From Hydractinia symbiolongicarpus (Eukaryota; Cnidaria; Hydrozoa; Anthoathecata; Hydractiniidae), in the NCBI RefSeq assembly GCF_029227915.1, contig NC_079877.1:32019851-32083850 (forward strand): a stretch of 64,000 bases of DNA, read 5' to 3'. The stretch's first letter is position 1. Every line of letters starts with the position of its first letter. Position numbers and translations under genes: made by a program. Of the stretch, positions 19,327 to 42,369 are shown piece after piece. The notes beneath the pieces are model-generated. The model made no database searches. It was not told where the DNA came from and saw nothing but the letters and a program-made list of their open reading frames with translations.

Positions 19327-19414
19327 TCACCATCATTAAAGAATGTGTAGCGCATTAGGAGTTTCATTTCACTCTAGTTCTTGTAATGCTGGTTATGATT
19401 AGGACAATGCGAAA

Positions 19415-19591
19415 ATGCTTAAACAAGAATTTAATAAATTTGATCGTAACGTACGCGAAGCATTGGAAATACAGTTCCAGGACACCTCACCGCGTAGTGA
19501 ACATGGCCTTAATCTAGACGATGGTCAGTATGTGACGACGAAATTCTTGAAGCCAATGTTCGCGTACCTTAAACGGAAGTCGTTACAGTGA
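19415..19591 (+). pseudogene. Short coding remnant, possible GIY-YIG retroelement tail
   Basis: A 58-codon ATG-to-TGA frame with a composition unlike the surrounding AT-rich DNA, rich in charged and polar residues. It contains REALEIQFQDTSPRSEHG followed by a GLNLDDGQYVTTKF stretch. The pattern 'REALEIQ ... LN-D-G' resembles the tail that follows GIY-YIG endonuclease domains in some Penelope-like or related retroelements. This is a recollection of family shape and has not been checked. No GIY-YIG core is visible upstream, because satellite begins 88 bp before the ATG. The piece could equally be the last exon of another gene. Confidence 0.35.
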
Positions 19592-20782
19592 CGTCGTTTT
19601 GATGTCAATGTAATGACAACCGTTAAAAAATTTTGTATAGTCTGATTAAGACCTCCAATATGGAGGTCGAAATATTACCATAAAAGTATATATGCTGAAC
19701 GACCATGTATATGTTTCTTTAAAGTATATGTAATGTACATTTTCTACTCAACTTAAAAAACGATTATCTTTTTCATATTTTGGACATATATATATATATA
19801 TCTTTCACTGATGCCAAGTTTTAATTTTCCTGTATTCATACGTCATATGGAATTATGAAATTCTGTGTGTATTTGCACATTTTTAAGATTCTTAATTGCG
19901 TAAGGTATATAAATACAGTATTTTTTCAAAAAATGAAATTAAAAGAACTACAAAATAACATAATTTTTTAGATCGTTTTTCACTGAAACAGCAAAAAAAA
20001 TTGTTGTCCAACACAAAATACACAAGGGTTTCGACTTGCACTCTAGGTTTACCTGTACTTTAAGCATTCTCCCAATAAAAGTTGACCAAATAGCTAAAAT
20101 TGTGTTGTTTGAAATAACGTATTATGCATAATCTCTTCATAAGTTTATTAAAAAAAATAATGTTACTTATATATAAATCAAATTGCAAAAGTCAACACGT
20201 ATTTCTGGTTTATAACTATTATATATCCAAAACCTCTAGTGTAAAGTTATATCCCGCATAAAATTTCAATGTGCTATATTCTCTTTTATTGACCTTTTCA
20301 CAGTTTAAGTTGTTCACTTATTTTCTGTATTAAAAAAGGAAGTAAACGGAGTGAATTTAATAAGACCATGGGCATTATAAATATTTTGTATTTTCTAAAA
20401 AAAATGGTTTTAAGGCATGAAAATTTAGTAAGTTATTGCCAGTAACCCTACTTAAAACATATTGAATGATTTGTAACTTTTCTTAATTCATAACAGTTTA
20501 CTTCCATTTTTCAATTCTCAAAAAAGAGCATTGTAACAAAAGAAAGATTTATTTAAACAATAGTTAGTTAAAACTGTGAACTCTTGTATTGCCTAATTTA
20601 TTTAATGTTTTTAACATCATTTTTATTTTTTTATTCTGTATATGTTTTGTGACAACTGCTATTTTATAAAGGTTAGCCATGTTTGATGTTTGGTGCCTTA
20701 TTGTCTATCCTTATTCATAGGAAATACTTTTTCTTAGTTATAAAGATAAAGAACCAATATTGAACTAAACTGCTAGCTTGAC
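19592..20782. other. AT-rich non-coding stretch
   Basis: No coding-like frame was seen on either strand. It includes a short (TA)n run at about 19785-19801 and many A/T homopolymers. If the downstream SET exons have a nearby promoter it would lie here, but no specific element can be identified. Confidence 0.5.
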
Positions 20783-20806
20783 ATGAACGCTGCTAGGAAA
20801 TATCCA
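20783..20806 (+). CDS. Candidate first exon of the SET gene
   Basis: ATG followed by eight codons (MNAARKYP), ending at a strong donor cca|gtgagt. The exon ends in phase 0, and the first clear SET-gene exon at 21194 begins in phase 0, so the two can be joined. The ATG frame stays open through the donor to 20971, so an unspliced 62-codon reading is also possible. This is a guess based on a donor consensus and phase agreement. Confidence 0.35.
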
Positions 20807-21193
20807 GTGAGTGAATTCATTTTTCATGGGGAAATGGAAAGTGATTTTCAATATAATAAACTAGTCAATAAGGCCCGTGGAGAAATCCACTTAGGCAGGA
20901 GGGACAATGTAAAAATTGGTTATTTTAGACCTTTTGCTGATGTCAGCAGTGCATATGAAAAAACGAATTGACGAAATTCATTTTATCCGTTGTCTCTATT
21001 GTGTAGAGCTTGACACGCTCATGTAGAGAATGTATGTGAATGTATGTGATTTTGATGAACGGTTAATGATATATAAGGGTTTAAAAATTATGCTGACGTC
21101 AGCAAAGACCCGCGAAAACAAAAAAAAATTACTTCAAATTATAGCCTTCATCATTGTCATGTCTCATGTGATGAGAGCTTTATCTATTTTTAG

Positions 21194-21932
21194 AAACGAA
21201 CACAGATTGACCCTTGGCAAGCATTAATAGAGAAAGGAGATCCTGAGGAGGGTTTCCAAAAATATTATATTCATTCAAAAATTGGTTTGTAGCTATACCT
21301 TATTATTTGTAAGCATTGCGAATAAACATTATTTAAAATCTTATGATATTTTTTAGGTTTTGGAGTGTTCGCATCAAATGAATATAAGGAAAATTCTCCA
21401 CTACTCCTTTACAGGGGAGAATTGATAACCCAGGAGGAGGCTCGGAAAAGATACCAGAACTATCAAGAGGAAGGGCTGGGAAACTACTTGTTTGACTTTA
21501 ATAGCAATGGTGAAAAATTATGGTAATAGGACACAATTTTGATGTAATATGTTCCAGGTTGTTTTGTATTTTACTAAAAGGAATACATAAGATAACAATG
21601 TATATATTACAAGACAGGATATTGCAGCTTTTGGTAATGGTACACAAATGTTGTCTAAAAACTCTAATTCAAGATATTTTAAACTTTGTTTCTAATCCGT
21701 AAATAGTATCTGAATAGTTTTTCTACTATATTTAAGCATTGATGCCACACATTCCAACTGCTTGGCGAGATTCGTGAATGATGCCCCATCCCGGTGTGCC
21801 AATTGTAAAATGGTGTTACTGGTTCGTGACAAAGTGCCGTATCTAGGCTTAAAGTCTCTAAAACTCATAAAGACTAATGAAGAGCTTAGATACGATTATG
21901 GTGACAAATGCATGTTGTCTTGGAGAAAGCAG
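21194..21932 (+). CDS. SET-domain lysine methyltransferase module (KMT5A/PR-Set7-like), three exons
   Basis: Three exons join in frame: 21194-21284 (after a ttttag acceptor), 21357-21522 and 21737-21932, with introns of 72 and 214 bp and GT..AG ends. The joined product of about 150 residues reads as a complete SET domain. In order it has KIGFGVFAS, then LLLYRGELIT with an EEARKR helix, then NYLFDF, then LCIDATHSN, then LARFVNDAPSRCANC, and finally EELRYDYGD. This order, and the spacing to YDYG, fits the KMT5A (H4K20 monomethylase) class, which transfers methyl groups from S-adenosylmethionine to histone lysine. One oddity is that the usual Asn-His pair of the cofactor-binding motif is Asn-Asp (VND). 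The pre-SET and post-SET cysteine clusters of other SET families are absent, as in KMT5A. No stop or frameshift was seen in these three exons. It lies upstream of, and on the same strand as, the DBF4-like and recombinase modules. Confidence 0.85.
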
Positions 21933-22004
21933 GTAATTTATTAACTCTAAGGAACTTTACTGTTATTTTGCTTTACAAATATTTACTGCATTTTTTTCTT
22001 ATAG

Positions 22005-22676
22005 AAGAACTTGTGTGTACCATTACATTTAAAAGATATAAAGAATCAGGTAAACATCATTATTTCTTGTATTGTACAAAAGTAAAAAGTAAAAAATTTA
22101 AAGATCCAGAGAAGCAAATATTCTCACCAGGATTCTATAATTTCAATTCAAGTTATTATTGATGTCAAATATTCTTGCACACAAAGCAGTTGTTTGGATT
22201 TTTGTGATCACAAAAAGAAATCTATTCTTGAGCTGTGATTTAAAAGAAGTTTCATTGTGAATTCATGTTTTCTATATTTGCACAAACAAAGTCAATTTTT
22301 TTCTTGCCTACTGCATGTTAAACTCGCATATTATCAAGGCTCAAGAAAATTAGTGTGTTCAAGGTTCTGCTTCTGTTCTTTCTTCCACTACAAGTTATCA
22401 ATAGAATTTCTCTTCCTGAGCACCATATACATTTTTAAAAGAAGAAACATATTTTATTTCAGGGTAATCAAAAGCTGCAGCAGAGTTCCAAGGTAATGTA
22501 GCTACTGTAACATGAAGTTCTTTGAGAGTCATTTTCTACTTTGGTGTTCAGTTGCATTTCTTGGCAATACTTCCACTTTTTCACAGTTCCTGTTGATTTT
22601 AAATTTTTGTCACTAGGTTTTAAAATTAATTGCACCTGTTAACATGGCATCTGTTTCTTGTGCTAACGTTGGCAAA
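22005..22676 (+). CDS. Short phase-0 exons following the SET domain
   Basis: Three short open segments have good splice sites and are all phase 0 at both ends. The first is 22005-22049 (KNLCVPLHLKDIKNQ, acceptor cttatag, donor gtaaac). The second is 22463-22492 (GNQKLQQSSK, acceptor tttcag, donor gtaatg). The third is 22617-22676 (VLKLIAPVNMASVSCANVGK, acceptor cactag, donor gtaagt). The SET module also ends in phase 0 at 21932, so all can be joined to it in frame. They would encode a low-complexity, non-catalytic linker. I recognise no domain. Individually such short exons are weak evidence, and the support comes from the consistent phases. Confidence 0.45.
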
Positions 22677-23251
22677 GTAAGTTATAGTTCACTTCCTTTA
22701 TTTTTTTTTGTTTTAAGTTTTAATTTTTAAGTTGATTGAATTTAGATGTCTAAATTCGTACCAACAGTAGGTACCGCATAATATTAGATCTTAAAGCAAT
22801 GTTCTTTAAAAATGCTTTATTCAACAATGGTTCTGTTTGTTAGAGTGATTATGTGATGGATATCATAATATACGAAATATAGTCTTTCTCAGATTGGTTA
22901 AATGCGAGTAGTTAGATTAGTTAATATGAACTAAAATAATATATTTAAACGTTAAAGTAATTTTTATCCTTACATATCATAACATTAGAAGAAGAATATA
23001 TCTTCCTTCAAGTGATTTTTTTATTTAGTAGGTATCCTTAAAGCTAGTTGAGTTTTTTAAAACTTTTAGTCGTTTAATCAGTAGCATCTAAGATAGTATA
23101 TTTTGACGAAATACCTGGGTTTTTTAAAAAGTGAATATAGTAGTGGAAAAAGCAGTATTGAGTAAGACTACAGTATTACAGATTCATAAAGGAGGAAGAA
23201 GGAACTCCAACTAATCAAGATTAACAAAGACAAAGTGAATCATGTCAGAAG

Positions 23252-23768
23252 ATGAATAAAAGGAAGCCTGTTACTGATACTAAGAAGGTGTGTTTGTCAC
23301 CAGAAAAGATGTATCACAGCAAGTTTGAAAAAAGTGTTCATCATGCTTTGACATTCTGGAATCAGTTTTGCCCAAGGCTAGTTGTAAACAAACACCGGTA
23401 ATGATTATGGCTAGGCCTGTAACGAAAAGACGTTCACTGTGCACTGAATTAGTTGTTGACAGGGAAGATTACGCATATGATATTGAATGTGAAGAAAATG
23501 GTGATGCACATCTAAGAAGTGGCGAGAGTAAGAAGCAGTGGTAAAAAGTTTGTAGAGAACTTGGAAGTCTCTAAGCCTCCCAGTAAAAAAAGTAATGCGG
23601 GGCAGGGAAATAATATGCGGTGAGCTATCAAGGCAAGCTCGAAGAAGTTTTATATTATCACAAAGCTAATAAAACAATATCTTTTGGCAGAGAATGGGTC
23701 CGTTGATATCCTTCTGATAAGTTGCCTGATGCCTGAACTTGGATCTGGTAGAGTTAGTACTGATTTGT
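23252..23768 (+). pseudogene. Decayed coding block with compensating frameshifts
   Basis: Coding-like sequence runs from an in-frame ATG at 23252 (MNKRKPVTDTKKVCLSPEK) to a TAA at 23768. It changes frame at the A6 run at 23328-23333. From there it continues as KKCSSCFDILESVLPKASCK and then a TKRRSLCTELVVDRED stretch up to a TAA at 23542. It returns to the first frame around 23541-23547 as KKFVENLEVSKPPSKKSN. A TGA at 23621 follows directly after a CGG codon, in a context where CGA-to-TGA decay is plausible. Beyond it the frame stays open (KFYIITKLIKQYLLAENGSV) to 23768. Upstream, a TAA at 23222 interrupts the same frame. The composition is rich in K, E, S and D with no recognised domain. It lies between the SET and DBF4-like modules and could be the N-terminal part of the latter. 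Confidence 0.5.
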
Positions 23769-23783
23769 AATAAATTTGTACAG

Positions 23784-23926
23784 AAAAATTTTAAACCAAC
23801 TTTAGAAAAGTCTAAATTTGAGTACCGCAGAACACCAGAGGCTTTATTTCTTCAAAAGATTTCCTCTTTTATATCAGGACTGCAGACTTATATTCAAATC
23901 AACCAAAAAAGAAGATATATATATAT
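23784..23926 (+). CDS. Possible exon, unrecognised
   Basis: After a tttgtacag acceptor, the frame reads KNFKPTLEKSKFEYRRTPEA and continues with LFLQKISSFISGLQTYIQ. The composition is protein-like compared with the flanks. The 3' limit is uncertain: the first reasonable donor is at about 23927 (gtatat), inside a TA-rich run. No domain is recognised. It sits between the decayed block and the DBF4-like exons on the same strand. Confidence 0.35.
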
Positions 23927-24188
23927 GTATATTTTTAAAAAATCAACTATATGAAAAATTAACTTTACTTATACCTTTATCATAAAAAATCGGGAGTATA
24001 TCTCTCTAATTTTCACATTCTTTATAATTAATAATTCTAGCGAGCAAGAATAATTTCGAAGATATGCTTTAAAGATATAAAGCAGACCAATGTGTCTGTT
24101 TAAGCTGCGGGCCAGCTATGTCCATCTATATTGTTACGTACTTGTATGTTAGACGCTTTCTAACTTGCATACATTACACGCTCTTTAG

Positions 24189-24349
24189 AGAAATAGTGCA
24201 GATGATCTTAGTCAACCACCCAGAAAGGTATGTTCAGTGCTTCAGTGTACATTTTATTATTTATATATTTGTTAACAGATTTATTAGTGATGTTTATCTT
24301 TTATTCTTAGCTAAAAAAGATCTCCCATGCTAGTATTCTGAAACTGAAG
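24189..24349 (+). CDS. Two 39-nt phase-0 exons upstream of the DBF4-like motif M
   Basis: The exons are 24189-24227 (RNSADDLSQPPRK, acceptor ctctttag, donor gtatgt) and 24311-24349 (LKKISHASILKLK, acceptor ttcttag, donor gtatgt). Both are exactly 39 nt, and both are open only in phase 0. In cellular DBF4 the corresponding region between the BRCT-like motif N and motif M is poorly conserved, so no homology claim is made. Confidence 0.45.
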
Positions 24350-24534
24350 GTATGTATTATATCACTGAATTTCATTTCCTAATAATAAACTAGTAGCAAG
24401 CGCTGTTTTTATGTTGCATATTTCCCGAGATGTTAATATATAAAACTAGCATTCTTATTTATTAAATTTTTGTACGATTGCTTAATTAATAACTAAAGGT
24501 TTTGCTTGTTATTTCAATTTTATCAATGATTTTA

Positions 24535-24601
24535 TTGTAGGAAGGGCAAAAAACTGTAATTGAGGTTCTACCTCAATTACAGTTTTTTGCCCTACCTACA
24601 A
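24535..24601. repeat. Near-perfect 31-bp hairpin overlapping an exon-like interval
   Basis: The arms at 24535-24565 and 24571-24601 are inverted copies with one mismatch, separated by the five bases ttcta. The arms contain gggcaaaaaactgtaattg and its complement. The interval between the flanking AG (24539-24540) and GT (24603-24604) is 62 nt and is open in one frame as EGQKTVIEVLPQLQFFALPT. Its end phase does not join correctly to the next exon at 24675, so it may be an inverted duplication that broke an exon, a microRNA-like fold-back, or an unrelated palindrome. Confidence 0.9.
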
Positions 24602-24674
24602 GGTGAGCACACTTACAATGAGAAGTATAACCTTTTATCAATAAACGTGTATTGTGACACAATTATTTTTATAG

Positions 24675-26098
24675 TATTAAAAGAGCCTTACATGATTATC
24701 AGAGATCGTGAAAAGTAAGTAGCTCTCTCCTTTCTTGTGTAGTTTTAACGTGTTCAGTAAATAAAAATAATAATGATTTGGCTTTATTACAACCTGAATC
24801 TCATGATTAAATTTGAATTGTTACCGTGAACGTATTGTTAATATGCCTGTTTCTTTATTATGTTTTTAGTTTGTTCAAGCCATTAATATATAAGACGAAG
24901 ATTCCTAATCTTCACTTTGAAAAGGGCTGTCTGTTTAAAATCGACAAGGAAATCAGAAGATATGACTCGTGTGATACAAGGTATCTTAACAGTTCACATC
25001 TAAATTAGTATTCTCTATGGTGCTCTTTTTTATTCCTAGGGCCACTATTTTAAAGTAAGAGTCTTCGTGTTTTAACTTTATGCTAACTACAACTTCTTAG
25101 CTGTTGGTGTATTGCAGCTAGTGGGCGGCAAAAAATTTTTTTTTTATGGTATGACAAATCAACAACGTAGAAAATGCCTAGATGTATTTTTTACAATTCC
25201 TGCATTACACGTTGTGTTGAAAGATAACCGTATTTTGACCTGAGCCTCAATTTTCTTTGCAAAATGACTGAATATAGGCTCAAATTTTCTTATTTTTTTC
25301 TTAATTTTTATTCCTCTTTGTTTTCTTTATAAATAACTACGATATTTTATCGACATTTGAAATAACATTTTTATTAAAGAAAAAAAGACTTCTTTTGTTA
25401 TTTTGGGATAAAACTTTATTAGTAATTGATTCCACTATTTTGAATACATTTTGCCTCCAGAGATCCATGAATGCTGTATAGCTAATTTACTAAAAAAAAG
25501 AAACTTGATTGTGTTCTTCTGAAATTACGGTGATTTTGGTAACTAAATATCTAAATATCAAGGTCTTTAAAAATTGAATCTTGACAAGCTGAAACTGGGG
25601 GTTTTCCTAAAATGTATTTACGATTTCAAGGTTTTTGAGCGTCATCTAATAATCTACGCATTTGTAAAAGAAAGCGCAAAAGTATTCGTTTTATCATAAC
25701 TCCAATAACGTCTCTTAAGATCCTTTCTATTAATGTTCACGTAATAAATATGTTCTTCCTAGACCTCAAGATGTTGCCAATGATGGCTTTTGTGAATGTT
25801 GCAAGATACGTTACACATCACTGCAACAGGTATATGTATGCTATGACCCCTTTTTTTCTTGTAGATCAAATCTGTTTCTTGGATACAAGAATTATATCAA
25901 CGGAAAAAATAAAGTTGATAGTTTTTTGACAGAAAGACTCGTTTAGCTATTGTTATTGTTTTGATAGCACCTCGACAGTGATCGTCATAAAAGCTTCGTT
26001 ACTAATAAAGAAAATTATGATAAAGTCGACCAGTTGATAGCTAAAGGAGTTAGTTTTGACGACTTTGTCGAAGCATGCAAGAAGAAAGCTGCTAAAAA
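24675..26098 (+). CDS. DBF4-like module: motif M and DBF4-type zinc finger
   Basis: Four exons join in matching phases: 24675-24714, 24870-24980, 25763-25829 and 25968-26098. The first two read LKEPYMIIRDREN across the splice, then LFKPLIYKTKIPNLHFEKGC. This matches the shape of DBF4 motif M, which has 'LKxPF-V-ED' followed by 'YRP' and a Pro-rich core. The last two give GFCECCKIRYTSLQQ, then HLDSDRHKSFVTNKENYDKV, and continue with DQLIAKGVSFDDFVEA. This is a C-x2-C-x9-H-x5-H finger followed by the DBF4 family's characteristic 'F-x(4-8)-Y-x-x-V/L-D-x-L/I' helix. In cells DBF4 is the regulatory subunit that activates CDC7 kinase, with motif M and the finger binding the kinase. The BRCT-like motif N is not seen. 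The last exon could also run on to 26138 (KYVLRNNRKCDFRE) before another gtatgt donor. No stop lies within these exons. Confidence 0.78.
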
Positions 26099-26138
26099 GT
26101 ATGTACTTAGAAATAATAGGAAATGTGATTTTAGAGAG

Positions 26139-27580
26139 GTATGTTATATTATAAGTAGTTACATGAAACTACACATTTAGTATGTTGTATTAGCTCATCA
26201 AAGTGATAATAGTATGACACATTAACAGAAGTGAATGTCAGTGATTTAGAACAACTCTTACGAGGAAAAGTATTAGAAGCAGATATGTTTTATTCTTTCT
26301 CAGTCATAATATATAATAGTCTTTTTATTTTAACTATTAAGTTTTGATAAAGAAAAATAAATCTTCAGGACATTTGGAGAATGTCCTGAAGAATTATTTG
26401 GAATAATTAGCTCTCATTTTTTTGCGTGCATTTCCGAATATATGTGAAAAAACGCTAATATTTTTTCATCTCACGCTAATATTTTTGCTTCATAGTTTTT
26501 GGGCGTGGGTTTTTTTACTTTGATTTCTAAGTGATATCCGTCGTTTCGTAGTTCCTAGGCAAAAGCGATATGTCCTAATTAGAGTTATGATTTGTTACAT
26601 TCGCTTTTTTTGCATCAGCATCATGTCAAGTACCTATCTGTTTTTAATAAAAATTTCTGGTGCTGTGTATGAAAGAAGATTGGTCCAAGCTCCAGTTAAT
26701 CTGCTAACGACGAGATGATCTTATCGTTGGACTAGCATTCAGATTCGCGTGCAAATTCACTATATCAAGTTGAGTAAAAAGAAAATCTAGGATGCTAGTT
26801 AGTAATAGGACGTTAACTTTTGAGTAAGCTGGTTTTAAATAGAAGCGTCTACAGTGATAAATCTAATTGTAAGTATTTTTAGTCTTTAAGTTACCTAGTT
26901 AGTAAACCAGCTACACAGTTTAAACAGTAGTTGCAATACGAATTGCAACTTATTGTTATTATTTAGTACAGTATAAAGGTGTTAAAAACTCAAAGTAGTA
27001 GTATTATATGACAATAAATTGATAATCCGTATTATAATCTTCATCGATTTTAGGTGCTGGCTTAATTGCAAAGATGATTCACTAGCGAAAGTGTAGGGAG
27101 TCAGAACACTATATATGGAATAGGAACTTCTGGTTCAGAGCTGCCAAAATTTATCTGTTCTTCCATCCACGATATTTATTGAACACTTGCAACAAACATG
27201 CATCAAACATTCGCAATAAGAGGAAAATAAATTTACACAAGTTATTGACTTGATCAATTCATGGCTTGAAATTCATTAAAAGTATTATAGAACATTCAAT
27301 TTATTGTTAGGTTATGCTATAAATGTTTTTCTATTTACAAAACATAGCATTTTAATTGTAATTCATATTTCTTCTTATTGGAAAAAAGAGTATATTTTAT
27401 TATATATTTTTAGCTCTTTACAAAGACAAGCTTGTCACGCATGTCAGAAAATTTGAGTGAGGAGCAACGATGTTTTATGATCTCGCACATTTGTGTCTAA
27501 AATACTACCTCGTAGCCAGAACAATTTACCTAGGACTTGTGACCAATTTAGCCTGCTAGCATTTTAACAAAGTTTAAAAA
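26139..27580. other. Intron/intergenic, AT-rich, with small palindromes
   Basis: No supported coding sequence. It contains a perfect 13-bp hairpin at 26362-26392 (tcttcaggacatt, loop tggag, inverted copy), a 9-bp hairpin at about 26929-26950 (agttgcaat) and a short direct repeat acgctaatattttt near 26450-26490. If the DBF4-like and recombinase modules belong to one transcript, this is part of an intron of about 3.3 kb. Confidence 0.5.
26362..26392. repeat. Perfect 13-bp hairpin
   Basis: The arms tcttcaggacatt (26362-26374) and aatgtcctgaaga (26380-26392) are separated by tggag. Function unknown. A U-run does not follow, and in a eukaryote this would not be a Rho-independent terminator. Confidence 0.85.
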
Positions 27581-27689
27581 CAAATTGATGGTGTGGCTAT
27601 AAGCTCCCCCTTAGGGCCTACGTTAGCAAGTATTTTGAAAAGTTGTCCTACAGAATTTACACCTATCTTTTATAGACGTTATGTAGACG
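27581..27689 (+). pseudogene. Reverse transcriptase fragment, Penelope-like
   Basis: The frame reads QIDGVAISSPLGPTLASIL, then KSCPTEFTPIFYRRYVD. The 'QxDGxAMGSPLGPxLAN' block and the 'F-x-x-RYVDD' catalytic block are reverse transcriptase landmarks, and this spacing and wording is typical of Penelope-like elements and related retroelements. The 15-25 residues normally between the two blocks are missing, and the frame breaks on both sides (a TAA lies just upstream at about 27575), so it is a dead fragment with an internal deletion. It has no relation to the surrounding exons except position and would sit inside an intron. Confidence 0.7.
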
Positions 27690-29387
27690 TAAAGGTGATT
27701 CCTTAGTAAATAATTTATTTAGAAAATCTACGTTTGGTGGTGTTGTTGTTGCAATAATTGTATTAGTGTATGAAAAACTTTCTATGATTCCTAGTAGATA
27801 TTGCACGAAAGGATATCGACTTTGATAGTTTGATCAAAGAAGCAGCTAAACATATAAACTTTGAAACTATTTTTTTTCAGTTTGCTTTTAGGCGGTTAGC
27901 TAATTATTTCATTGGCCAGGTTGGTCATATCAAACTCTGTCTATTTGTCACGCTTCCTCAAGTTTACCCGCAAGCTCAGAACCCTTTCTCCTTCTTTAAC
28001 AAAAATAGTCAAATATGTTTTCCATCCTGGAATTTGGCATTGGCAATCTGCGAGTGATGATGTGAATTAATTCCAACATCACTCGTGAATTCTCAAGGCG
28101 TTTTTAGGTAGAAACGTACGATGAGCGATTTTTTGTTAGACATGATAGTACGTAGTTCATGGACAAATGGCATATGTTCGCAACACGAATTCTTTTTCAC
28201 GCACAATTAAAGGACAATCTTTTATACGTGAAATTTTTAGTTTTTATAAGGTTAGGTTTTTCTTGCAAGCAACACTTTTCCCAATGGAATTTTTCTCATT
28301 ATTAAGTGATCGATAAATATAACTTAAAATTGGTAGTATTTATTAACATGGCTCTTAATTTGTAACAACCATATCAACACTGACATTGGCCAACATAAAA
28401 TAATCTTTTCCCTTATAAACAAAATACTCCCTAGATGTTTCTTCTATAATATTGAATCCAGGCTAAATACAGTAAATATGGTACCAATAAAATTATATTC
28501 AACGCTAATTCACTCTCACTGAAAGCATACTGGTTATTGCTATTCCGCAAGTTTCTTTGCTGTGTTATCGTGATTGTGCGGGAATCAGTAGCAGGCTTTT
28601 AGTAGGCAGGCTTAAGTCTCGTTCGAAAGGTTCTACATACACGTTCGCTGCCACTCCGTATTGCATTGCATAGGAAAGAAGTCATTGCGATAAACATTGT
28701 GTTGCGTCAAAAGTTTGCGTAAATGTAAAATTTCAAAAGCACCCAATAGACTTGTTTCGATGACATTGCCACTTTATCCGGACTATGTATTGTTTCCTGT
28801 TCCTAAGGTTTTGTTCTTGTTTTTCCGTTTTTTGCTGGATTTTCCGTTTTCAGTCCACCCATGTTTTTTAAACGTTTCTTAACTTTTTTCGTTTCTGAGC
28901 CTCGTATTACTCACATAAAAAAACGAGTAAGTTTCTTGGCATATAAATAAAGATCCTGGTGTGATTTAACATGCGCTGTAGCAGTAGAACTAATGCATTT
29001 GGTTATAGATATATACCTACATTGTGAATATAAGTAGCCTACCATTTTAATTACTTACCATTTTTATTCCTTTTTGTTGCTTTTCATTATTATGCGTATC
29101 CAAGTTATTGTCTCTAACAAACTAGTTTACATACTACTGCCTCAGATTCCTTACTTCTGAAGTGGTCTTCTTAAGTTCATTTTAGATTCCTTAATCGTTT
29201 TGAACAGCAGTATTTTTAACAAATTTCATTTAAATTATTATTTTTTTCGCTAGAATGTAAAATTTTGCATTAACAAAAGGGAAATATCAATTATAAGGAT
29301 ATTTAGGCAACTCAAGCACTAAGTTTTTTATTTAAACTGTGGTGATATGTAAAACAAAATAACAAGAAAACATTGTTTCCTTTATAG
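27690..29387. other. AT-rich stretch without supported genes
   Basis: Only weak open segments are present, such as 27830-28057, which reads IDFDSLIKEAAKHINFE near its start and shows no domain. A small inverted repeat lies at 28051-28085 (cgagtgatg and catcactcg). Nothing else stood out on either strand. Confidence 0.4.
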
Positions 29388-29563
29388 GATTCTGAAAAGA
29401 TGCAGGGTATGTTAAAAATTGTTTTTGTTTTTACTATCCAACATTTGTATTCATATTTCTCTAGAATGCTTTTTTTAGATTTCCTTTGGTTGTGAACAAT
29501 TAAAAAACGAATTGAAATTGGACATTGGAAACACGAGCGACGAAACCAAAAAAGAAAACAAAG
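29388..29563 (+). CDS. Two linker exons between the DBF4-like module and the repeat exons
   Basis: The first, 29388-29406 (19 nt, acceptor tttatag, donor gtatgt), joins the short form of the DBF4-like exon (ending in phase 2 at 26098) to read KILKRCR. The second, 29479-29563 (acceptor ttttttag, donor gtacat), reads ISFGCEQLKNELKLDIG and then a charged NTSDETKKENK tail. It ends with one extra base, which is exactly the phase required by the following 63-nt exons. The second exon is convincing because only one frame is open and both ends fit. The first is too short to be sure of. Confidence 0.55.
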
Positions 29564-29681
29564 GTACATAAAATTACGTAATTACTGCAAAATTATCTAA
29601 TCAGATTTTTTCTATTTTCTCGTCATATTCCCAGAACTTAGAAAAGCACTTGCATAAAATTTGATATCCTGATATATGTAG

Positions 29682-30987
29682 AAAGTCCTCTTAACGATGG
29701 TCGACAATTTGAGGTTACCTTCGAAGGGATCGAACCTTTGGAAGGTATTAACAATTCTTTGCATATAATTAAAGTTGTTTTGCATTGCACATGGAGTTCT
29801 GTGATCTGTCAGATACATTTTTAAAAAAATTATGTTTAGAAACTCCTCTTAACGATGCTCCACAATGTGATGCTACCGTGACAGGCGTCGAACCTTTCAA
29901 AGGTATTAACAATTCTTTGAATTTGGTTGAACTTGTCTTACTTTTCACATGTTGTTTTTACACAAATTACATTTTTTATCAACATTATGTTTAGAAACTC
30001 CTCTTAAAGATGCTCCACAATGTGATGTTACCGTGACAGGCGTCGAACCCTTCAAAGGTATTAACAATTCTTTGAATTTGGTTGAAATTGTCTTACTTTT
30101 CACATGTTGTTTTTACACAAATTACATTTTTTATCAACATTATGTTTAGAAACTCCTCTTAAAGATGCTCCACAATGTGATGTTACCGTGACAGGCGTCG
30201 AACCCTTCAAAGGTATTAACAATTCTTTGAATTTGGTTGAACTTGTCTTACTTTTCACATGTTGTTTTTACACAAATTACATTTTTTATCAAAATTATGT
30301 TTAGAAACTCCTCTTAAAGATGCTCCACAATGTGATGTTACCGTGACAGGGGTCGAACCCTTCAAAGGTATTAACAATTCTTTGAATTTGGTTGAAATTG
30401 TCTTACTTTTCACATGTTGTTTTTACACAAATTACATTTTTTATCAAAATTATGTTTAGAAACTCCTCTTAAAGATGCTCCACAATGTGATGTTACCGTG
30501 ACAGGGGTCGAACCCTTCAAAGGTATTAACAATTCTTTGAATTTGGTTGAAATTGTCTTACTTTTCACATGTTGTTTTTACACAAATTACATTTTTTATC
30601 AAAATTATGTTTAGAAACTCCTCTTAAAGATGCTCCACAATGTGATGTTACCGTGACAGGGGTCGAACCCTTCAAAGGTATTAACAATTCTTTGAATTTG
30701 GTTGAAATTGTCTTATTTTTCACATGTTGTTTTTACACAAATTACATTTTTTATCAACATTATGTTTAGAAACTCCTCTTAAAGATGCTCCACAATGTGA
30801 TGCTACCGTGACAGGCGTCGAACCCTTCAAAGGTATTAACAATTCTTTGAATTTGGTTGAACTTGTCTTACTTTTCACATGTTGTTTTTACACAAATTAC
30901 ATTTTTTATCAAAATTATGTTTAGAAACTCCTCTTAAAGATGCTCCACAATGTGATGCTACCGTGACAGGCGTCGAACCCTTCAAAG
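29682..30987 (+). repeat. Nine tandem copies of a 63-nt symmetric exon with its intron
   Basis: The exons lie at 29682-29744 (diverged) and then at 29840, 29995, 30150, 30305, 30460, 30615, 30770 and 30925, each 63 nt. The last eight start exactly 155 bp apart and are nearly identical, introns included. Each has a tatgtttag acceptor and a gtatta donor, starts with two bases and ends with one base of a split codon (phase 1-1), so any number can be included without changing frame. One copy encodes 21 residues, E TPLKDAPQCDVTVTG then VEPFK. The diverged first copy reads SPLNDGRQFEVTFEG then IEPLE. The upstream exon ends, and the downstream exon starts, in the same phase. The result is a repeat of 9 x 21 residues in the linker before the zinc fingers. 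Copies differ at a few positions (GTT/GCT for Val/Ala, and C/G in ggcgtc versus gggtc). Confidence 0.9.
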
Positions 30988-31079
30988 GTATTACCAATTC
31001 TTTGAATTTGGTTGAAATTGTCTTACTTTTCACATGTTGTTTTTACACAAATTACATTTTTTATCGAAATTATGTTTAG

Positions 31080-31499
31080 AAACACATGGTGTTGACTTCA
31101 GGAGCGAAACTGTAAAAAAATAGTAAGTTTCTACAGAATGAACATATTTTACGAGTAATAAAAGAGTCGAAAATTAAGACTTACCTACAAGTATCTCATT
31201 TTTATTATAGTAAATACAAACGGCAACAATTTACCTGTCCAGTGTGTAAGAAGGCAGTATATAATCTCCCGAGACATCTTCAGGGAAAAGATCACAAATG
31301 GACGGCCGAGTCTGCCAAGGCTGTAGTCAGCCATTTTTCTTTACGAAAAAAAAAGATCAAGAATACTGCTACTGAAAGTTCATCGAAGCAGGACTATCAC
31401 ACCCTTCGTATATGTCCGTTGGGACAGTGTGTCAAAGTCGTGAAAAGGTTAGACGACCACCTTTTAAATTTTCACAAGATGAAACGCGATACAAAATAG
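31080..31499 (+). CDS. Two C2H2 zinc fingers preceding the recombinase (truncated by TAG)
   Basis: Exon 31080-31122 (THGVDFRSETVKK, donor gtaagt) joins in phase to an exon starting at 31211, giving KYKRQQFT before the first finger. Finger 1 is CPVCKKAVYNLPRHLQGKDH (C-x2-C-x9-H-x5-H). Finger 2 is CPLGQCVKVVKRLDDHLLNF followed by H (C-x4-C-x9-H-x4-H). In related eukaryotic tyrosine-recombinase proteins I remember, a paired finger of this type ('CPV-x-x-C ... VVKRL-x-x-HL') stands directly before the recombinase, which supports the assignment. The frame meets a TAG at 31497-31499. It would otherwise continue (YSLLKNASKFSKPLKSD) to a TGA at 31653, which argues for a nonsense mutation rather than a natural end. 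Confidence 0.75.
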
Positions 31500-31650
31500 T
31501 ACAGTTTACTCAAAAATGCATCAAAGTTTTCGAAGCCATTAAAATCTGATGTTGCTTTGGCTTCTCCCCGTAAACAAATATTGTCAATCAAACAAAAATT
31601 CATGTTAAAAAGTAATTTCGAAGAATCAAAAACACCACCAGAATCAGATC
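31500..31650 (+). pseudogene. Linker between zinc fingers and recombinase, with stop and frameshift
   Basis: In the zinc-finger frame this stretch is open and protein-like (YSLLKNASKFSKPLKSDVAL, then SPRKQILSIKQKFMLKSN) between the TAG at 31497 and a TGA at 31653. The recombinase frame takes over just after, offset by one base, at a run of eight A (31655-31662). A single indel in that homopolymer would join the two frames. No plausible intron explains both lesions. A homopolymer sequencing error could explain the shift but not the TAG. Confidence 0.55.
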
Positions 31651-33240
31651 GTTGAAAAAAAAGAAAAAACTTGTACGGTAACGAATCCATCACCTCAACA
31701 ATATGCTACTGATCAAGATCCTTTAACTCCGTTGAAAAATTACAAACCTGACAATACTGATGCTTCCGCGGTAAAGATATACAGGATGATGCCTGAAGCA
31801 TGCAAGAGTGAAGTGGCTTCTACTAATAGCGGAAGTGATTCGGAGTATTTACCGTCGAACGATGATGAAACGGAGCAAATTGTTTTGCCAAATGATGAAG
31901 TTGAATTTTTCTTTGATCGCTTTCTTAGCTTTATTTGCGGCCCAGACGGAGGCATGAGGGATAGAACGTCTTCTATAAATGTTGTAAACGATGTCAGGAG
32001 AATTTATAAAATTATTAACGCGACATCCGTAGCGGATCTCTTAAATAAAGAAAAATTGAGGAATAAATATTTAATGGGATATTGTGTTAAGAAAAAACAT
32101 GCGCCTGATTCTATTAAAAAGTATCTCTATTCCCTAGAAGACTTTTGTAATTTCGTGATTGTAGAGGATGTTGTTATCCCAGGTATAACAATTGAGAATA
32201 TTCAACAAATGAAAGTTGTTTTCCGCTCCTGGCGAAAAAACTACAATAAAGGCGCGAGAGACCGTTATTGGGAGCGTCAAGAGACAGATTTTTTAATGAT
32301 AGTGACACCGCAACAAGTTCAAACATATCTTAAGAGCAAGAACGCGCAACTGGCAAAGGAGATATTTACTAAGTTAACTCAGGATGCAAATACGGTGCTT
32401 TCAAATACAGAGTATTGTGCGATTCGTGACCATTTACTCGCTCTAATTCATTTTAGTAATGGACATAGATCCGGTGTAACAGCAAATTTGACAATCTCTG
32501 AGTTCGAACGAGCGGTGGAAATCGATTCAACGTACTTAATAAAAGTTCGCAAACATAAAACGTTTACATTTTCTGGTCCCGCTATCATATCTTTGGATCA
32601 AGAACAGTACGCTTATCTTAAACTCTTTGTTACAAATCGCAAAGCTAATTTATCGTTAGAGTTCGATAATGTCTTCGTTTCCTGCTCGGGAAAACAAATG
32701 GCATCAGGTTCAATAAGTAAGCAAATCAATAGTCTGTGGGTTAAGTCCGGGATCCTTGATCCAGCGAAACAACCAAAAAATCTGTGTTGTAATGTCATCA
32801 GAAAAAGCACAAGCACGGGTTTAAGAGATGCAAGCTCTGGACATTACCAAGAAGCTGCGGATCTGATGGCTCATAGCCTTAAAACGGCCGAAAAACATTA
32901 CTTCCTTCGCGAGAAACAACAAGCCGCAGTTACTGCGGGACGTGTTATAAGGCAACATTTCTTGGAAGACGAACCCACGAAATCAATTTTATCTACTCCT
33001 CCACGAAAAATCGCGGAAATAAATGAGCATGCATCGCCACGACATCAATGGAGAATAGAGGAGGTACAAACAATACAGGAAATGTTTAAAGAAGAAATTG
33101 AAAACAGGGATATATCGATGCTTAACGTAAGAGATAAAAGACCTATGCTGAATGTACCTGTTGATATCTCTATCAAGCAAATCTATGATAAAGTCCGTAG
33201 CTTAATGCGATATACTCCTGTTAAGCGACCTTTAATTACT
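31651..33240 (+). CDS. Tyrosine recombinase (phage-integrase-like fold, Crypton-like)
   Basis: A long open frame of about 530 codons with no intron. Counting residues from the codon at 31732, the acidic N-terminal part (1-60) is followed by a helical, SAM-like DNA-binding region (about 80-200) with YLMGYCVKKKHAPDSIKKYL. The catalytic domain runs from about 225 to 395. Its first active-site Arg is R246 in FSNGHRSGV, and the beta-hairpin Lys is K276 in VRKHKT. N354 stands where many family members have His, and R357 follows in NVIRKST. H381 is in LMAHSLKTAEKHY, and the nucleophile is Y390. These residues cleave and rejoin DNA through a 3'-phosphotyrosine intermediate. The architecture of C2H2 fingers before a recombinase with no reverse transcriptase fits Crypton-type DNA transposons better than DIRS or Ngaro. 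The frame stays open to a TAA at 33265, but a gtaagc donor at 33241 probably ends the exon at ATT ACT. Confidence 0.88.
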
Positions 33241-33568
33241 GTAAGCAGCGGATCTGTTTCTGTTTAAATCTGCAGTTTTTGATTCTTTTTATAAGATCCT
33301 AGTTTTTTTAAGGTCTCGTTTCCTTACTTTGATGTTAAATGATCATATCTTTTCTGAATTTAATCGCGATTCCTGATTAATCCTGAAAAATTTTATAACT
33401 GAGAAAATATTTTTTGGTAAGCCGTAAATGCAACTTATGGGAGGTGTATAAAAAACGCATTTAGTACCGCTCATACATTGCATATTGTGCTATTCACATG
33501 GAAGGCAAATAAACTTGAGAATTAGCTTTAACCTGAGATAAACTAATTGACATTTTCACATTTTTCAG

Positions 33569-33945
33569 GAAACTGTAAGTACGGCAAGTAGTGTGCCACA
33601 GCAAAAATCTTTATTCAGAGTAAGTAGTAGGTTTAATTTTTTGGTACACTCTCCAAAGATTATCAGAGGTACAATGTGTATAATGTATTGCCCTGAATGT
33701 TCTTGGAAAAAATATCATTTAAAAATACTTATTTTTTTTTCTTTCTGTTATACTAGGGCAAGAGAAGAAGTTTATTTTGCGATAAAGATGTTCAACTGCT
33801 ACGTCAAAAGTGCTCGGATATTATTGCTAATGGTCCTTTAACGAAACAAGCTGTCACTAAGGCGTTGGAAGGGGAAGATATACTAAACAAATTTACTTTT
33901 GTACAAATTCGTACTCGTTTGGACTACGAAAGAAGACAACTATGA
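33569..33945 (+). CDS. C-terminal exons of the recombinase, Myb/SANT-like
   Basis: Exon 33569-33619 (ETVSTASSVPQQKSLFR, acceptor tttttcag, donor gtaagt) and exon 33757-33945 (62 codons, TGA at 33943-33945) are both phase 0 at the joints. They connect in frame to the recombinase exon ending at 33240. The last exon begins GKRRSLFCDKDVQLLRQKC and ends LDYERRQL, with an evenly spaced helical pattern. The end of the recombinase exon (from W440, QWRIEEVQTIQEMFKEEI, to KQIYDKVRSLMR) has the same character. Together they resemble a pair of Myb/SANT-like DNA-binding repeats, which I infer from pattern only. An ATTAAA at about 33976 might serve as a polyadenylation signal. Confidence 0.6.
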
Positions 33946-34926
33946 ACACATCTGTTCCATGAACTTATGCCAGTCATTAAAACGAATAACTCTTCGTTAA
34001 AATTATTAAACATGTTAATGCTCTGTTTTTGTTTCTTTGCTAATTGTTCTTAAAATTGATGTTGCATGTTATCCCAGAGGCAGCACTGCTATCACGCACG
34101 ATACTGTACTTTCCTAATTTTGACGACGATTATAATACTGACTTAATTTTTGACAACTAGTTTTAATTAATGAAACTAAGTTTGGCTAAGCTGACATTTT
34201 CTTTAAATACAACCTTGATTAGACAAAATGTGTTTTCTTGCTAATTTCATTTTGTGTATATAACGCTTGATGCACTGCTTTCTAAAGTTTATATTTTGTT
34301 TATGAGCTGTAAAGGCATTGGTCATCTCTACTACATCCTATGCATGAATCTGTTTTAGCAAACTTGAATCTTCTTGTTATTACACCCTCTACTTTCGTAA
34401 TTTGTATAAGCACGTGTTTTACGAACTCGTTTAAAAGTTAGAATTCAATTTAAAGTTTTTAGAAGATGCTTCATAGCATTATTATTGTACTTTTTACCAC
34501 ACGTTTTTAAAGAAAAAATTAGCTTTAATGTAGACTGAAATATCTCTTGTTTGTATATAGTGAAAAATGTTGTGTATAATGTGTCTACACGAAATTGCCC
34601 CGGTTAAATTAAGAGATATGGATCCGGGACACGTAAACTACTACCTACACTTTATTGGACTTGTCTACTACTTTTCCGTCATGCATACCTGAACTATTAA
34701 ACTATTTATTAAAGTAATGGCTGCTGAAAATATCGACATTGCTGTTGCTGAAAGTATCATAGGTGAAGTCATTGGTCAAGAAGCCTTTTCTTCGACGAAT
34801 AAAATTTTAGCTAAAAGTATTTGTATATGATATTAGTAAATTGGTTTGGCCTTGTTCGTTTCGGTTGATTTTCTTAACAGTATCGAAAATTTAAAAAGTC
34901 TGGCGCACACCATAGGCAAACTGGCG
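33946..34926. other. Intergenic AT-rich stretch
   Basis: Mostly featureless. A 37-codon ATG frame at 34717-34830 starts MAAENIDIAVAESIIGEV and has reasonable composition, but no partner exon was found. It is noted only as a weak possibility. Confidence 0.35.
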
Positions 34927-35136
34927 GTCTCTTAGGCCGTCGCTTGAGCTGTTGTGAAAAAAACTTACACGTCCGCAAATAACCGAAACGAAAAAGTTGC
35001 ACCACAAGTTAAAATATAAAAATCGCATATAAAACAATTGCATGATAACAAAACTTACGCTAATTTAATAATCGCTAGCCATGCCCTTGTAGTATGCGGA
35101 CAGCCGCCTCAGGTAACAAGCCGCCGCCTAAGAGAC
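34927..35136. repeat. Imperfect inverted repeat, possible MITE
   Basis: gtctcttaggccgtcgcttg at 34927-34946 and caagccgccgcctaagagac at 35117-35136 are inverted copies matching at 17 of 20 positions. They are GC-richer than the surroundings and enclose about 170 bp of AT-rich DNA. The layout resembles a small non-autonomous DNA transposon. No target-site duplication could be fixed. Confidence 0.4.
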
Positions 35137-35234
35137 TGCTTATAAACCCGAGGTAATTTTACGAAGACTGTCCAAGTCTGCAACGGAAGGTGTAGTGGCA
35201 TTTGCTATTAACTCTTTTTCTCTCTCTCCTGTTA

Positions 35235-35255
35235 CTATAAGAAGACTTCTTATAG
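35235..35255. repeat. Perfect 21-bp palindrome
   Basis: ctataagaag, one central a, then cttcttatag. The arms are fully complementary. Function unknown. Confidence 0.8.
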
Positions 35256-35640
35256 CAAATTCGCTTTGGTTTAATGTTAAAAAACGCAAGTCAAATATAT
35301 ATCAGTCTTTCCTAACTTGCAAATAAAAACTCACAGCAGAATATAATACTCTCAACCTCAAAATAAAATACTCTTGTCGCGTATGTAGGGCTTAGATTTT
35401 GTCACTTGTAACAAGCAACCAAATTTAAAATTATTGAATCCGTTACATGAAATTAGTTTGAGGCATACAATCTATGTACTCTTTGCTTTTGTGTCATCAA
35501 TACGTTTTATATGTACTTTGTGTAGGCAATTTGGTTATGCAACATCTGCATCCGATCTATCAATCCTGCTACAATAAACTAGTACAACTGATACAAAACT
35601 GTGAGCCCTGCTACAAGAAACTATTCTTGTAATACAAACT
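35256..35640. other. AT-rich stretch leading into a tandem array
   Basis: No coding sequence seen. From about 35560 it holds scrambled pieces of the array that follows, such as ctagtcgactaata and caatcctgctac, suggesting a decayed edge. Confidence 0.4.
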
Positions 35641-37200: not shown

Positions 37201-37489
37201 TTCCTATTACAGAAAACTTGTCTCAGTGATACAAACTAGAATAATATATAATGTTAATAGTTCTTTCAACACTTTGCCTTTAATTTACGATATTGGTCGT
37301 GAACATGATATATAATGCTGTAAAAACAAACATGAATGCGAGTTGCCGTGGTCAGTACACTATCCTGTGAAAGTGTTTTGGGCATTGTTGGCTCCCAACA
37401 ACATAACAGTTTCAATATCTATGTTTTGGTTTAGTTAAAATAAGTAGTAAGTAATAAAAAAGATTCACACGACAACGCAACCTCCATAC
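37201..37489. other. Short unique stretch
   Basis: AT-rich, with no coding frame that I trust. The minus-strand frame over 37412-37636 is hydrophobic and includes a hairpin, so it is not taken as a gene. Confidence 0.35.
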
Positions 37490-37538
37490 CAGGACCTGTA
37501 GCGTTTTCTGATATGACAATGAAACGCTACAGGTCCTG
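37490..37538. repeat. Perfect 17-bp inverted repeat
   Basis: caggacctgtagcgttt (37490-37506) and aaacgctacaggtcctg (37522-37538) are exact inverted copies separated by 15 bases. It could be a fold-back RNA or the scar of an inverted duplication. It lies about 100 bp from the minus-strand coding remnant. Confidence 0.88.
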
Positions 37539-37645
37539 AAAAAAATTGCTTCTGTCTCTTGTATCATTCCCTTTGATTTTACGACTATTATGTAAAATAA
37601 TACTTTCACCATCAATTCCGGGATCAATGAAACCAAACAACGCAG

Positions 37646-37885
37646 TTAATATTTTAATACTTGGCATGCCTGCATAACGTAGTTAGTATACTGTTGGCGT
37701 TTGGTAATGAGTTCTTCCTTCTTCTTAATAAGGTCTTCTGCTCCTGTATTATTGTCCTTAGTATTACTGACAACAATGTCAAAATCGATTTCAGAAATAT
37801 TACTAGCATTGTTTTCAGGTTCAACGGACAATTTACATGATTTTCTTGGTGATAAACGCTACATTGGAGCTTTTCGGAGCCTTTC
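37646..37885 (-). pseudogene. Coding remnant on the minus strand, unrecognised
   Basis: On the minus strand the frame reads ERLRKAPM, a TAG, then RLSPRKSCKLSVEPENNASN, continuing as ISEIDFDIVVSNTKDN and ending with an EDLIKKKEELITKRQQYTNY helix and VMQACQVLKY before TAA at 37646. The acidic middle and charged helical end look like a real C-terminus, so the TAG at 37859-37861 looks like a nonsense mutation in an old last exon. I do not recognise the family. The neighbouring frame is also open but has less protein-like composition. Confidence 0.45.

Positions 37886-42368: not shown

Positions 42369-42369
<1 letters not shown>
41201..42369. other. AT-rich stretch up to the right satellite
   Basis: No supported gene or repeat. 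It ends in a short non-satellite tail just before the AAT microsatellite. Confidence 0.4.

What the first reader, a model, noticed from the sequence alone, without database searches (positions are those of the whole stretch)
20783..33945. Composite SET / DBF4-like / zinc-finger / tyrosine-recombinase locus inside a satellite
One strand carries, in order, a KMT5A-like SET domain, a DBF4-like motif M plus DBF4 zinc finger, an amplified exon array, two C2H2 fingers, a tyrosine recombinase and a Myb-like end. Splice phases agree at most testable joints, including across module boundaries (26098 to 29388 to 29479 to 29682, and on to 31080, 31211, 33240 and 33569). This may be one very large Crypton-like transposon gene, or two or three genes of one element. 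The joint at 24602/24675 does not fit, so a full single transcript is not shown. I know of no described element with this set.
Basis: partly seen in the sequence, partly recalled or inferred. Interest (0 to 1): 0.92.

Follow-up and report, generated by a model that had tools for sequence, protein, structure and literature searches.

The report
Transposon with SET, DBF4 and recombinase
In a colonial hydroid, a family of large jumping genes appears to make one protein that joins a DNA-cutting recombinase to a histone-methylating domain and a piece of a replication-starting factor, a combination we did not find described.

Summary
The locus is real: a damaged copy of a large mobile element in Hydractinia symbiolongicarpus, cut on its left by a satellite. 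KMT5A-type SET exons, DBF4 motifs M and C, an array of 63-bp exons, C2H2 fingers and a tyrosine recombinase (YR) follow on one strand. From motif M to the second finger the window exons read in frame for 449 codons, then break. A 97-99% identical copy on contig C9 stays open for 1,403 codons from motif M to the C-terminus. Two other families in this genome carry the fusion: one has SET, zf-DBF, C2H2 and YR in a single 1,272-codon frame; another joins SET-DBF4 to C2H2-YR across one phase-0 intron. Of 91 SET loci listed, 24 have a YR downstream on the same strand within 12 kb, none on the opposite strand. Ends lie in (TAA)n at 16 of 16 termini examined (2 inferred); at two loci two elements share one (TAA)n. 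Eleven shorter copies keep both ends and lack the YR, 10 with the same deletion. SET-C2H2-YR proteins also occur in fish, echinoderms, molluscs and corals; the DBF4 part was seen only here. Transcripts, strand exchange, methylation and any link to replication are untested.

The parts
19328..42400 (+). part of the mobile element present in the window (left end missing, right end in (TAA)n)
   Evidence: 97-99% identical pieces in C9 with unrelated flanks; ends shared with 11 shorter copies
19328..19727 (+). 3' end of a Penelope-type element at the satellite junction; label recalled, no Pfam match
   Evidence: many short genomic matches end at query position 401; more of it in C8; 0 Pfam families
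21194..21284 (+). SET exon 1
21357..21522 (+). SET exon 2
21737..21932 (+). SET exon 3
24544..24592 (.). inverted repeat, 23-base arms; probably not a coding exon
   Evidence: letters, read by eye; inverted self-match
24675..24714 (+). DBF4 motif M exon a
   Evidence: (C4 relative)
24870..24980 (+). DBF4 motif M exon b
   Evidence: (C4 relative)
25763..25829 (+). zf-DBF exon 1
25968..26098 (+). zf-DBF exon 2
29388..29406 (+). 19-bp exon
   Evidence: in frame
29479..29563 (+). exon before the array
   Evidence: in frame
29682..30987 (+). array of 63-bp exons, one divergent and 8 alike, every 155 bp after the first
31080..31122 (+). exon joining the array to the C2H2 part
   Evidence: same joint in NCBI model P0001
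31211..33240 (+). C2H2 fingers and tyrosine recombinase exon; broken here by a stop at 31497-31499 and a frameshift before about 31645
   Evidence: open in C9
33569..33619 (+). C-terminal exon 1
   Evidence: P0001 and C9
33757..33945 (+). C-terminal exon 2 and stop
35660..37199 (.). 146-bp tandem array with 10 copies of CAATCCCGCCCGG (2 mismatches allowed), inverse of a motif 51 bp inside the left element end
42337..42370 (+). right terminus, with one inverted copy of the CTGTTTTGTTACA motif
42371..42400 (+). (TAA)10 at the right end, then satellite

Best explanation
The window holds a damaged copy of a tyrosine-recombinase DNA transposon whose single long gene encodes a SET8-like methyltransferase domain, motifs M and C of DBF4, an expandable repeat linker, two C2H2 fingers, a YR and a C-terminal domain. 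Most likely working: fingers and C-terminal domain bind the repeated motifs near the ends; the YR exchanges strands inside the terminal (TAA)n tracts, excises the element (probably as a circle) and joins it to another (TAA)n tract, which also lets two elements sit in tandem on one tract. The SET and DBF4 parts act on the chromatin and replication state of donor, circle or target. Shown by sequence: modules, long reading frames, ends, (TAA)n context, copies, deletion derivatives, tandem junctions. Inferred: circle, strand exchange at TAA, DNA binding. Inferred from homology alone: methylation and CDC7 binding.
For: SET, zf-DBF, C2H2 and YR in one 1,272-codon frame at C4:6127807-6131622. Compact family: SET and zf-DBF exon followed by the C2H2-YR exon across a GT-AG phase-0 intron in 3 of 3 copies; the frame stays open beyond the joint for 373 codons in 1 of 3. 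C9: 33 exons, 1,403 codons from motif M to a stop, last 770 residues identical to NCBI model P0001. 24 of 91 SET loci have a same-strand downstream YR within 12 kb, 0 of 91 an opposite-strand YR, 0.08 expected. Left ends in (TAA)n in 6 of 6 copies read; right ends in 10 of 10, 8 read and 2 inferred from where the alignment ends. In C7 and C9 a compact element's right end and the large element's left end share one (TAA)n. Eleven shorter copies share both ends; 0 of 11 has a listed YR match; 10 of 11 share one deletion. Catalytic residues invariant in 24 of 24.
Against: No transcript was seen. In the window and C9 lineage the link from SET exon 3 (phase 0) to the motif M exon (which needs an incoming phase of 1) is unresolved. 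NCBI model P0001 starts in the array and has no SET or DBF4 part. Two array exons of C9 lack a GT donor. The window copy is broken; window against C9 shows 8 non-synonymous and 1 synonymous codon change in the YR stretch, and 4 and 3 in the SET and DBF4 stretches, so no purifying selection is visible at that depth. The C4 frame is shifted before its last 205 codons, and 2 of 3 compact copies stop soon after the joint. The YR assignment is below the Pfam cut-off, a profile search of the PDB found no recombinase, and the fold was not predicted. 50 of 74 YR loci had no SET listed within 12 kb upstream (one of these is the C9 copy, at 13.6 kb). The empty-site search did not complete.
Confidence: 0.82

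Rival explanations
1. Nested or neighbouring elements: a recombinase transposon inserted into an unrelated SET-DBF4 element, so that the modules only happen to be adjacent.
For: Eleven copies with the same ends lack the array, fingers and YR; NCBI's model holds only the YR side; these elements do cluster in tandem.
Against: SET, zf-DBF, C2H2 and YR share one frame at C4 and one gene in the compact family; C9 reads from motif M through the YR in one frame; the similarly diverged copy at C14:1.69 Mb has pieces that run across both deletion borders and has the YR, so the short copies most likely lost it.
Confidence: 0.05
2. One element but two or three genes: SET-DBF4 and the array-C2H2-YR part are separate proteins in the window lineage, although fused in relatives.
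For: The joint between SET exon 3 and motif M is unresolved; P0001 is a stand-alone recombinase model.
Against: Motif M to C-terminus is one 1,403-codon chain in C9; relatives are fused.
Confidence: 0.15
3. The SET and DBF4 parts do not act in replication; they are degenerate or serve another end, such as keeping element chromatin open or guiding target choice.
For: 14 of 14 element SETs compared have ND where human SET8 has NH (read from the alignment); most residues of DBF4 outside M and C are absent as far as Pfam and PDB matches show; zf-DBF was not among the 25 of 27 families shown for 40 relatives in other animals.
Against: SET and zf-DBF are recognisable in three Hydractinia families, which argues for use.
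Confidence: 0.5
4. A true Crypton (CryptonA) that picked up extra domains.
For: YR residues; direct repeats at both ends; Cryptons are reported from a cnidarian (PMC3212892, section 8).
Against: No DUF3504 match (25 of 27 families shown) or 117; animal Cryptons are described as having no C-terminal domain and no terminal repeats found, and both are present here.
Confidence: 0.2

Closest known systems
Cryptons (tyrosine-recombinase DNA transposons; Kojima and Jurka 2011, PMC3212892; abstract, sections 5 and 8 and passages seen)
   Same: YR with R, R and Y residues; [quoted passage not shown] accessory domains occur, e.g. a C48 peptidase in some.
   Different: SET and DBF4 parts; 'SET domain', 'methyltransferase' and 'DBF4' occur 0 times in that paper's main text; a C-terminal domain after the YR, which animal Cryptons are said to lack; no DUF3504 match.
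Telomere-associated YRs of endogenous nimaviruses (PMC10871703; passages seen)
   Same: YR with a C2H2 zinc-binding domain; insertion into a microsatellite, there (TAACC)n; concatemers or episomes suggested; described as not close to DIRS, Enterprise or Cryptons.
   Different: Large viral genomes (pemoniviruses 300-360 kb); here no viral gene was recognised, the tract is TAA, and SET and DBF4 parts are present. Sequence kinship was not tested.
Unnamed SET-C2H2-YR proteins of fish, echinoderms, molluscs and corals (P0028 and relatives)
   Same: SET first, then C2H2 and YR, in 19 of 40; repeat-expanded linker in 12 of 19; profile match to the YR and C-terminal part, probability 96, E 3.6e-9.
   Different: YRs only 11-17% identical to those of three Hydractinia families, SETs 29-47%; zf-DBF not among the 25 of 27 families shown for the 40 proteins.
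Host KMT5A/SET8 and DBF4
   Same: SET best matched by SET8; motifs M and C of DBF4.
   Different: Fused to a recombinase; ND instead of NH in 14 of 14 element SETs compared; the rest of DBF4 not recognised.

Membership tests
Crypton | tyrosine recombinase with its catalytic residues | tested here: met
   R491, K521, R602, H626, Y635 invariant in 24 of 24. The residue where other YRs have the first His of box II is Asn or Thr in rows seen (comparison recalled). Fold not predicted.
Crypton | no reverse transcriptase of its own | tested here: inconclusive
   8 frames of 75 aa or more in 33950-42400, the longest 99 aa, not scanned against families; a Penelope-type 3' end lies at the left (label recalled)
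Crypton | short direct repeats at both ends as recombination substrate (fungal and stramenopile groups) | tested here: met
   (TAA)n at 6 of 6 left and 10 of 10 right ends, 2 of these inferred; strand exchange itself untested
CryptonA (animal Cryptons) | no C-terminal domain after the YR | tested here: not met
   a C-terminal part follows the YR in P0001, C9 and the compact and C4 families
Crypton | YR groups with known Crypton YRs or DUF3504 | tested here: inconclusive
   no DUF3504 match (25 of 27 families shown); no reference Crypton sequence at hand
Nimaviral telomere YR family | YR plus C2H2, insertion into a microsatellite | tested here: met
   resemblance in build and target only
Nimaviral telomere YR family | sequence kinship with majaniviral YRs | not tested
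   no nimaviral sequence fetched; in viral contigs 65 stretches matched a pattern and 0 were confirmed
KMT5A-type SET | closest to SET8/KMT5A | tested here: met
   first 14 of 60 rows shown (101 matched)
KMT5A-type SET | NH of the cofactor motif (role recalled) | tested here: not met
   ND in 14 of 14 element SETs against NH in human SET8 (alignment, by eye)
DBF4 | motif M followed by motif C (zf-DBF) | tested here: met
   two stretches on 4f99_B, motif M weak alone; window zf-DBF E 3.6e-17
DBF4 | binds and activates CDC7 | not testable with these tools
   needs a binding or kinase assay

The most novel reading that the evidence does not exclude
A transposon that carries its own replication switch: the SET8-like domain marks element chromatin and the DBF4 M-C module recruits CDC7 kinase to the element or its excised circle, so that YR-driven excision and insertion into (TAA)n are tied to origin activation and gain copies. 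The SET module has been paired with at least two very distant YR lineages in animals, and the linker between them has been expanded into repeats again and again.
Probability: 0.3. Interest if true: 0.95.

Novelty: new variant of a known kind. Interest (0 to 1): 0.87.

Why it matters
If right, a mobile element has brought together a chromatin writer (SET8 type), the CDC7-binding part of an origin-firing factor (DBF4) and a site-specific recombinase in one protein. It would make a testable case of a transposon that steers the replication of its own DNA, give an animal recombinase aimed at a trinucleotide microsatellite, and name a widespread group of unannotated SET proteins in fish, echinoderms, molluscs and corals as parts of recombinase elements.

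Tried and rejected
Rejected or doubted: nested elements (see rivals); a host gene cluster (copies with shared ends speak against it); the exon ending at 24602 (inverted repeat). A common fused ancestor of the Hydractinia and Solemya proteins is doubtful: SET identity 0.46-0.47, YR identity 0.12-0.15; exchange of modules is likelier. The correlation of SET and YR identities (r 0.67, 0 of 2000 permutations) is largely set by the two groups and is not used as proof. In the same call's SET tree human SET8 falls beside the fish SETs (supports 0.75-0.82), so a single origin of element SETs apart from host KMT5A is not shown. YR profile in viral contigs: 0 confirmed. YR profile in the PDB: no recombinase among 15 rows at E <= 1.

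Paper searches without a description of a SET or DBF4 recombinase transposon in the listings: (27, 67 and 91 gave 0 papers). Seen in part: PMC3212892 (abstract, sections 5 and 8, passages), PMC10871703 and PMC10411563 (passages); all others listing only. The library holds open-licence papers only and Repbase could not be searched, so a named entry may exist.

Own errors: one search misplaced two exons and still used the wrong copy of a C9 exon; one search is the corrected C9 chain, another the valid window chain. One search used a wrong frame; one search is the correction. A palindrome test returned false because the slice was off; the arms were then read by eye.
Full report
WHERE IT IS. The window is G000:C3:32019851-32083850 of a 480.9 Mb genome. 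The best protein match to the recombinase, P0001, is an NCBI entry of Hydractinia symbiolongicarpus on a contig of 32,621,594 bases, the length of contig C9 here; I take the host to be this hydroid. The assembly paper reports 48% of the genome as unclassified repeats and its main text has no occurrence of 'crypton' (PMC10411563, passages). The finding lies between arrays of a 373-bp satellite, 3-19326 and 42399-64000.

THE MODULES. Three SET exons join in frame and score as SET (E 1.1e-13), closest to SET8/KMT5A among solved structures. Four exons from 24675 to 26098 join in frame and give zf-DBF at E 3.6e-17. The same part of a relative at C4 matches human DBF4 (4f99_B) in motif M and motif C, whole match E 4.5e-08, the motif M stretch alone 12.3 bits. 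One divergent and eight alike 63-bp exons follow, then C2H2 fingers and the recombinase. In the window 17 exons from 24675 to 33240 read in one frame for 449 codons, up to a stop at 31497-31499 after the second finger; a frameshift follows, and the recombinase is open for 552 codons in its own frame. The C9 copy has 22 alike array exons and a tandem duplication of the stretch equal to window 23073-24918; taking the second copy of the motif M exons, 33 exons read for 1,403 codons to a stop, and the last 770 residues equal NCBI's model. Two of its array exons lack a GT donor. Unresolved: how SET exon 3 reaches the motif M exon, and where the gene starts.

ONE PROTEIN. At C4:6127807-6131622 a single frame of 1,272 codons holds SET (E 6.1e-14), zf-DBF (E 9.9e-12), C2H2 and YR; a frameshift separates the last 205 codons. 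A compact family has copies on C1, C7 and C8 at 98-99% identity; the C8 copy lacks about 1 kb of the YR. Its first long exon holds SET and zf-DBF (E 3.4e-15 and 3.4e-12 in the C1 copy), its second the fingers, YR and C-terminus. A GT-AG intron of 744-784 bp joins them in phase 0 in 3 of 3; beyond the joint the frame stays open for 373 codons in the C8 copy and stops after about 30 codons in C1 and C7. Upstream of the C9 copy a third example has SET and the second finger in one frame, broken by one stop. Genome-wide, 102 SET hits (91 loci) and 82 YR hits (74 loci) were listed; 150 of 226 and 79 of 290 candidates were scored, so these are lower bounds. 24 SET loci have a YR downstream on the same strand within 12 kb, 3 have one upstream on the same strand, 0 on the opposite strand; 0.08 expected. 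The C9 copy, at 13.6 kb, is not among the 24.

THE MOBILE UNIT. Window and C9 copies are 97-99% identical piece by piece over 19328-42299 and have unrelated flanks. Eleven further loci share both ends of this stretch (40 of 306 and 40 of 2083 candidates scored). 11 of 11 keep part of SET exon 3. In 11 of 11 window 21128-21618, with SET exons 1 and 2, has no match; in the copies checked by coordinates (C7, C8, C12, C4:15.3 Mb) 530-536 bp of other sequence stand there, so it is replaced or diverged, not simply deleted. Both zf-DBF exons are kept in 9 of 11, partly in one (C4:21.8 Mb), and lost in one (C4:15.3 Mb). 0 of 11 has a listed YR match. In 10 of 11 window 28462 and 33200 lie 13 bp apart on the contig, one shared deletion of array, fingers and YR; the eleventh (C14:4.1 Mb) is cut slightly differently. 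The copy at C14:1.69 Mb (about 93% identical) has pieces that run across both borders and has the YR, so the short copies most likely lost it. They look like non-autonomous relatives that kept the ends.

THE ENDS. The left end is (TAA)n followed by CTATATTCATGGACTGTTTTGTTACATG in 6 of 6 copies read: C9, C8, C14:1.69 Mb (tract imperfect), C7, C12, C2:18.3 Mb (5 repeats). The right end reaches a TAA tract in 10 of 10 copies examined: 8 have 10 or more repeats in the letters read (window, C8, C15, C2:19.6, C11, C14:4.1, C2:18.3, C4:15.3) and 2 (C10, C12) have about 8-9, inferred from where the alignment ends. The C9 right end is cut before the terminus; the C7 right end was not read. The flanks read beyond the tracts differ by eye. 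In C9 and C7 the right end of a compact element (AGGAACATCC) and the left end of the large element share one (TAA)n, of 10 and 26 repeats. Repeated insertion into one tract would give this; spread of a ready-made pair from one locus to the other is not excluded. CTGTTTTGTTACA (one mismatch allowed) occurs four times within about 155 bp of the left end and once inverted near the right end. CCGGGCGGGATTG, 51 bp inside the left end, recurs inverted 10 times in the window's 146-bp array and 11 times in C9 (two mismatches allowed; mean 0.12 per shuffle of the window, 50 base shuffles). That these are binding sites is an inference. The window's left end is missing: the satellite cuts into a Penelope-type 3' end at 19328 (label recalled), and C9 has 4.6 kb more.

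THE RECOMBINASE. R491, H520, K521, R602, H626 and Y635 are invariant in 24 of 24; R491, R602, H626 and Y635 also in a 14-protein set with fish, echinoderm, mollusc and coral members. Pfam integrase matches 11 of 24 at E <= 0.1, best 7.1e-06. No PDB recombinase was reached by profile, and the fold could not be predicted because the machine was busy. Between window and C9, 8 non-synonymous and 1 synonymous codons differ in the YR stretch, 4 and 3 in the SET and DBF4 stretches, so no selection is visible at that depth.

OTHER ANIMALS. A SET-directed search gave one hit, a Solemya velum protein of 1,041 residues, with SET by Pfam and, as its letters show, C2H2 fingers and a YR. A search with it listed 40 proteins including itself. 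With profiles built here, 21 of 40 have both SET and YR, 19 with SET first; seven proteins seeded the YR profile and eight the SET profile and match by construction. Pfam finds SET in 28 of 40. The 19 come from fish, echinoderms, molluscs and corals; two are models from one Acropora contig. 12 of 19 have tandem repeats in the linker (score 21.5 or more; 40 shuffles reach at most 5; 18 SET-less recombinases, P0002-P0019, at most 7). The units look unrelated, so linker expansion like that of the window's exon array seems to have happened repeatedly. Their YR and C-terminal part matches that of the Hydractinia set at profile level (probability 96, E 3.6e-9), identity 0.11-0.17, SETs 0.29-0.47. 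zf-DBF was not among the 25 of 27 families shown, so the DBF4 part may be a hydrozoan gain.

MECHANISM. The build fits a YR transposon that excises and inserts by strand exchange in (TAA)n; endogenous nimaviruses give a precedent for YRs with a C2H2 domain and microsatellite insertion (PMC10871703, passages). SET8 and DBF4 act in replication control in host cells (general knowledge). One protein with both suggests that the element steers replication or chromatin of its own DNA. This rests on homology only: 14 of 14 element SETs compared have ND where SET8 has NH, and no activity was tested.

VERDICT. I rate it a new variant of a known kind, a YR DNA transposon, because the recombinase principle is known while this module set was not found in the papers searched. 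On re-checking, the claim of a shared SET deletion was changed to 'replaced or diverged', and confidence was lowered from 0.85 to 0.82.

Noticed in passing
P0052, P0053, P0056, P0057: Four fish proteins annotated as M-phase phosphoprotein 8 match this kind of YR, and Pfam finds a chromo domain in 4 of the 40 proteins: capture, domestication or fused gene models.
   Followed up: no
P0031, Montipora capricornis: SET, a Ulp1/C48 peptidase and YR in one predicted protein; C48 peptidases are also described in some Cryptons.
   Followed up: no
P0029, Anableps anableps: One 1,649-residue model holds SET-YR twice in a row, as if two elements in tandem were read as one gene.
   Followed up: no
C9 copy, region equal to window 23073-24918: This stretch is duplicated in tandem in C9; the duplication cuts the first copy of motif M exon b, the second copy is whole.
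   Followed up: partly
L016, upstream of the C14:1.69 Mb copy: Pieces of a second YR closely like the C4 family lie a few kilobases upstream of that copy's left end, another sign of clustering.
   Followed up: partly
C12:23122327-23123688: Another YR relative (38% identity) lies 11 kb right of the C12 short copy; possibly a further tandem neighbour.
   Followed up: no
window 3-19326 and 42399-64000: Long arrays of a 373-bp satellite; the published assembly lists satellites at 0.03% (passage), so this one may be counted among unclassified repeats.
   Followed up: no
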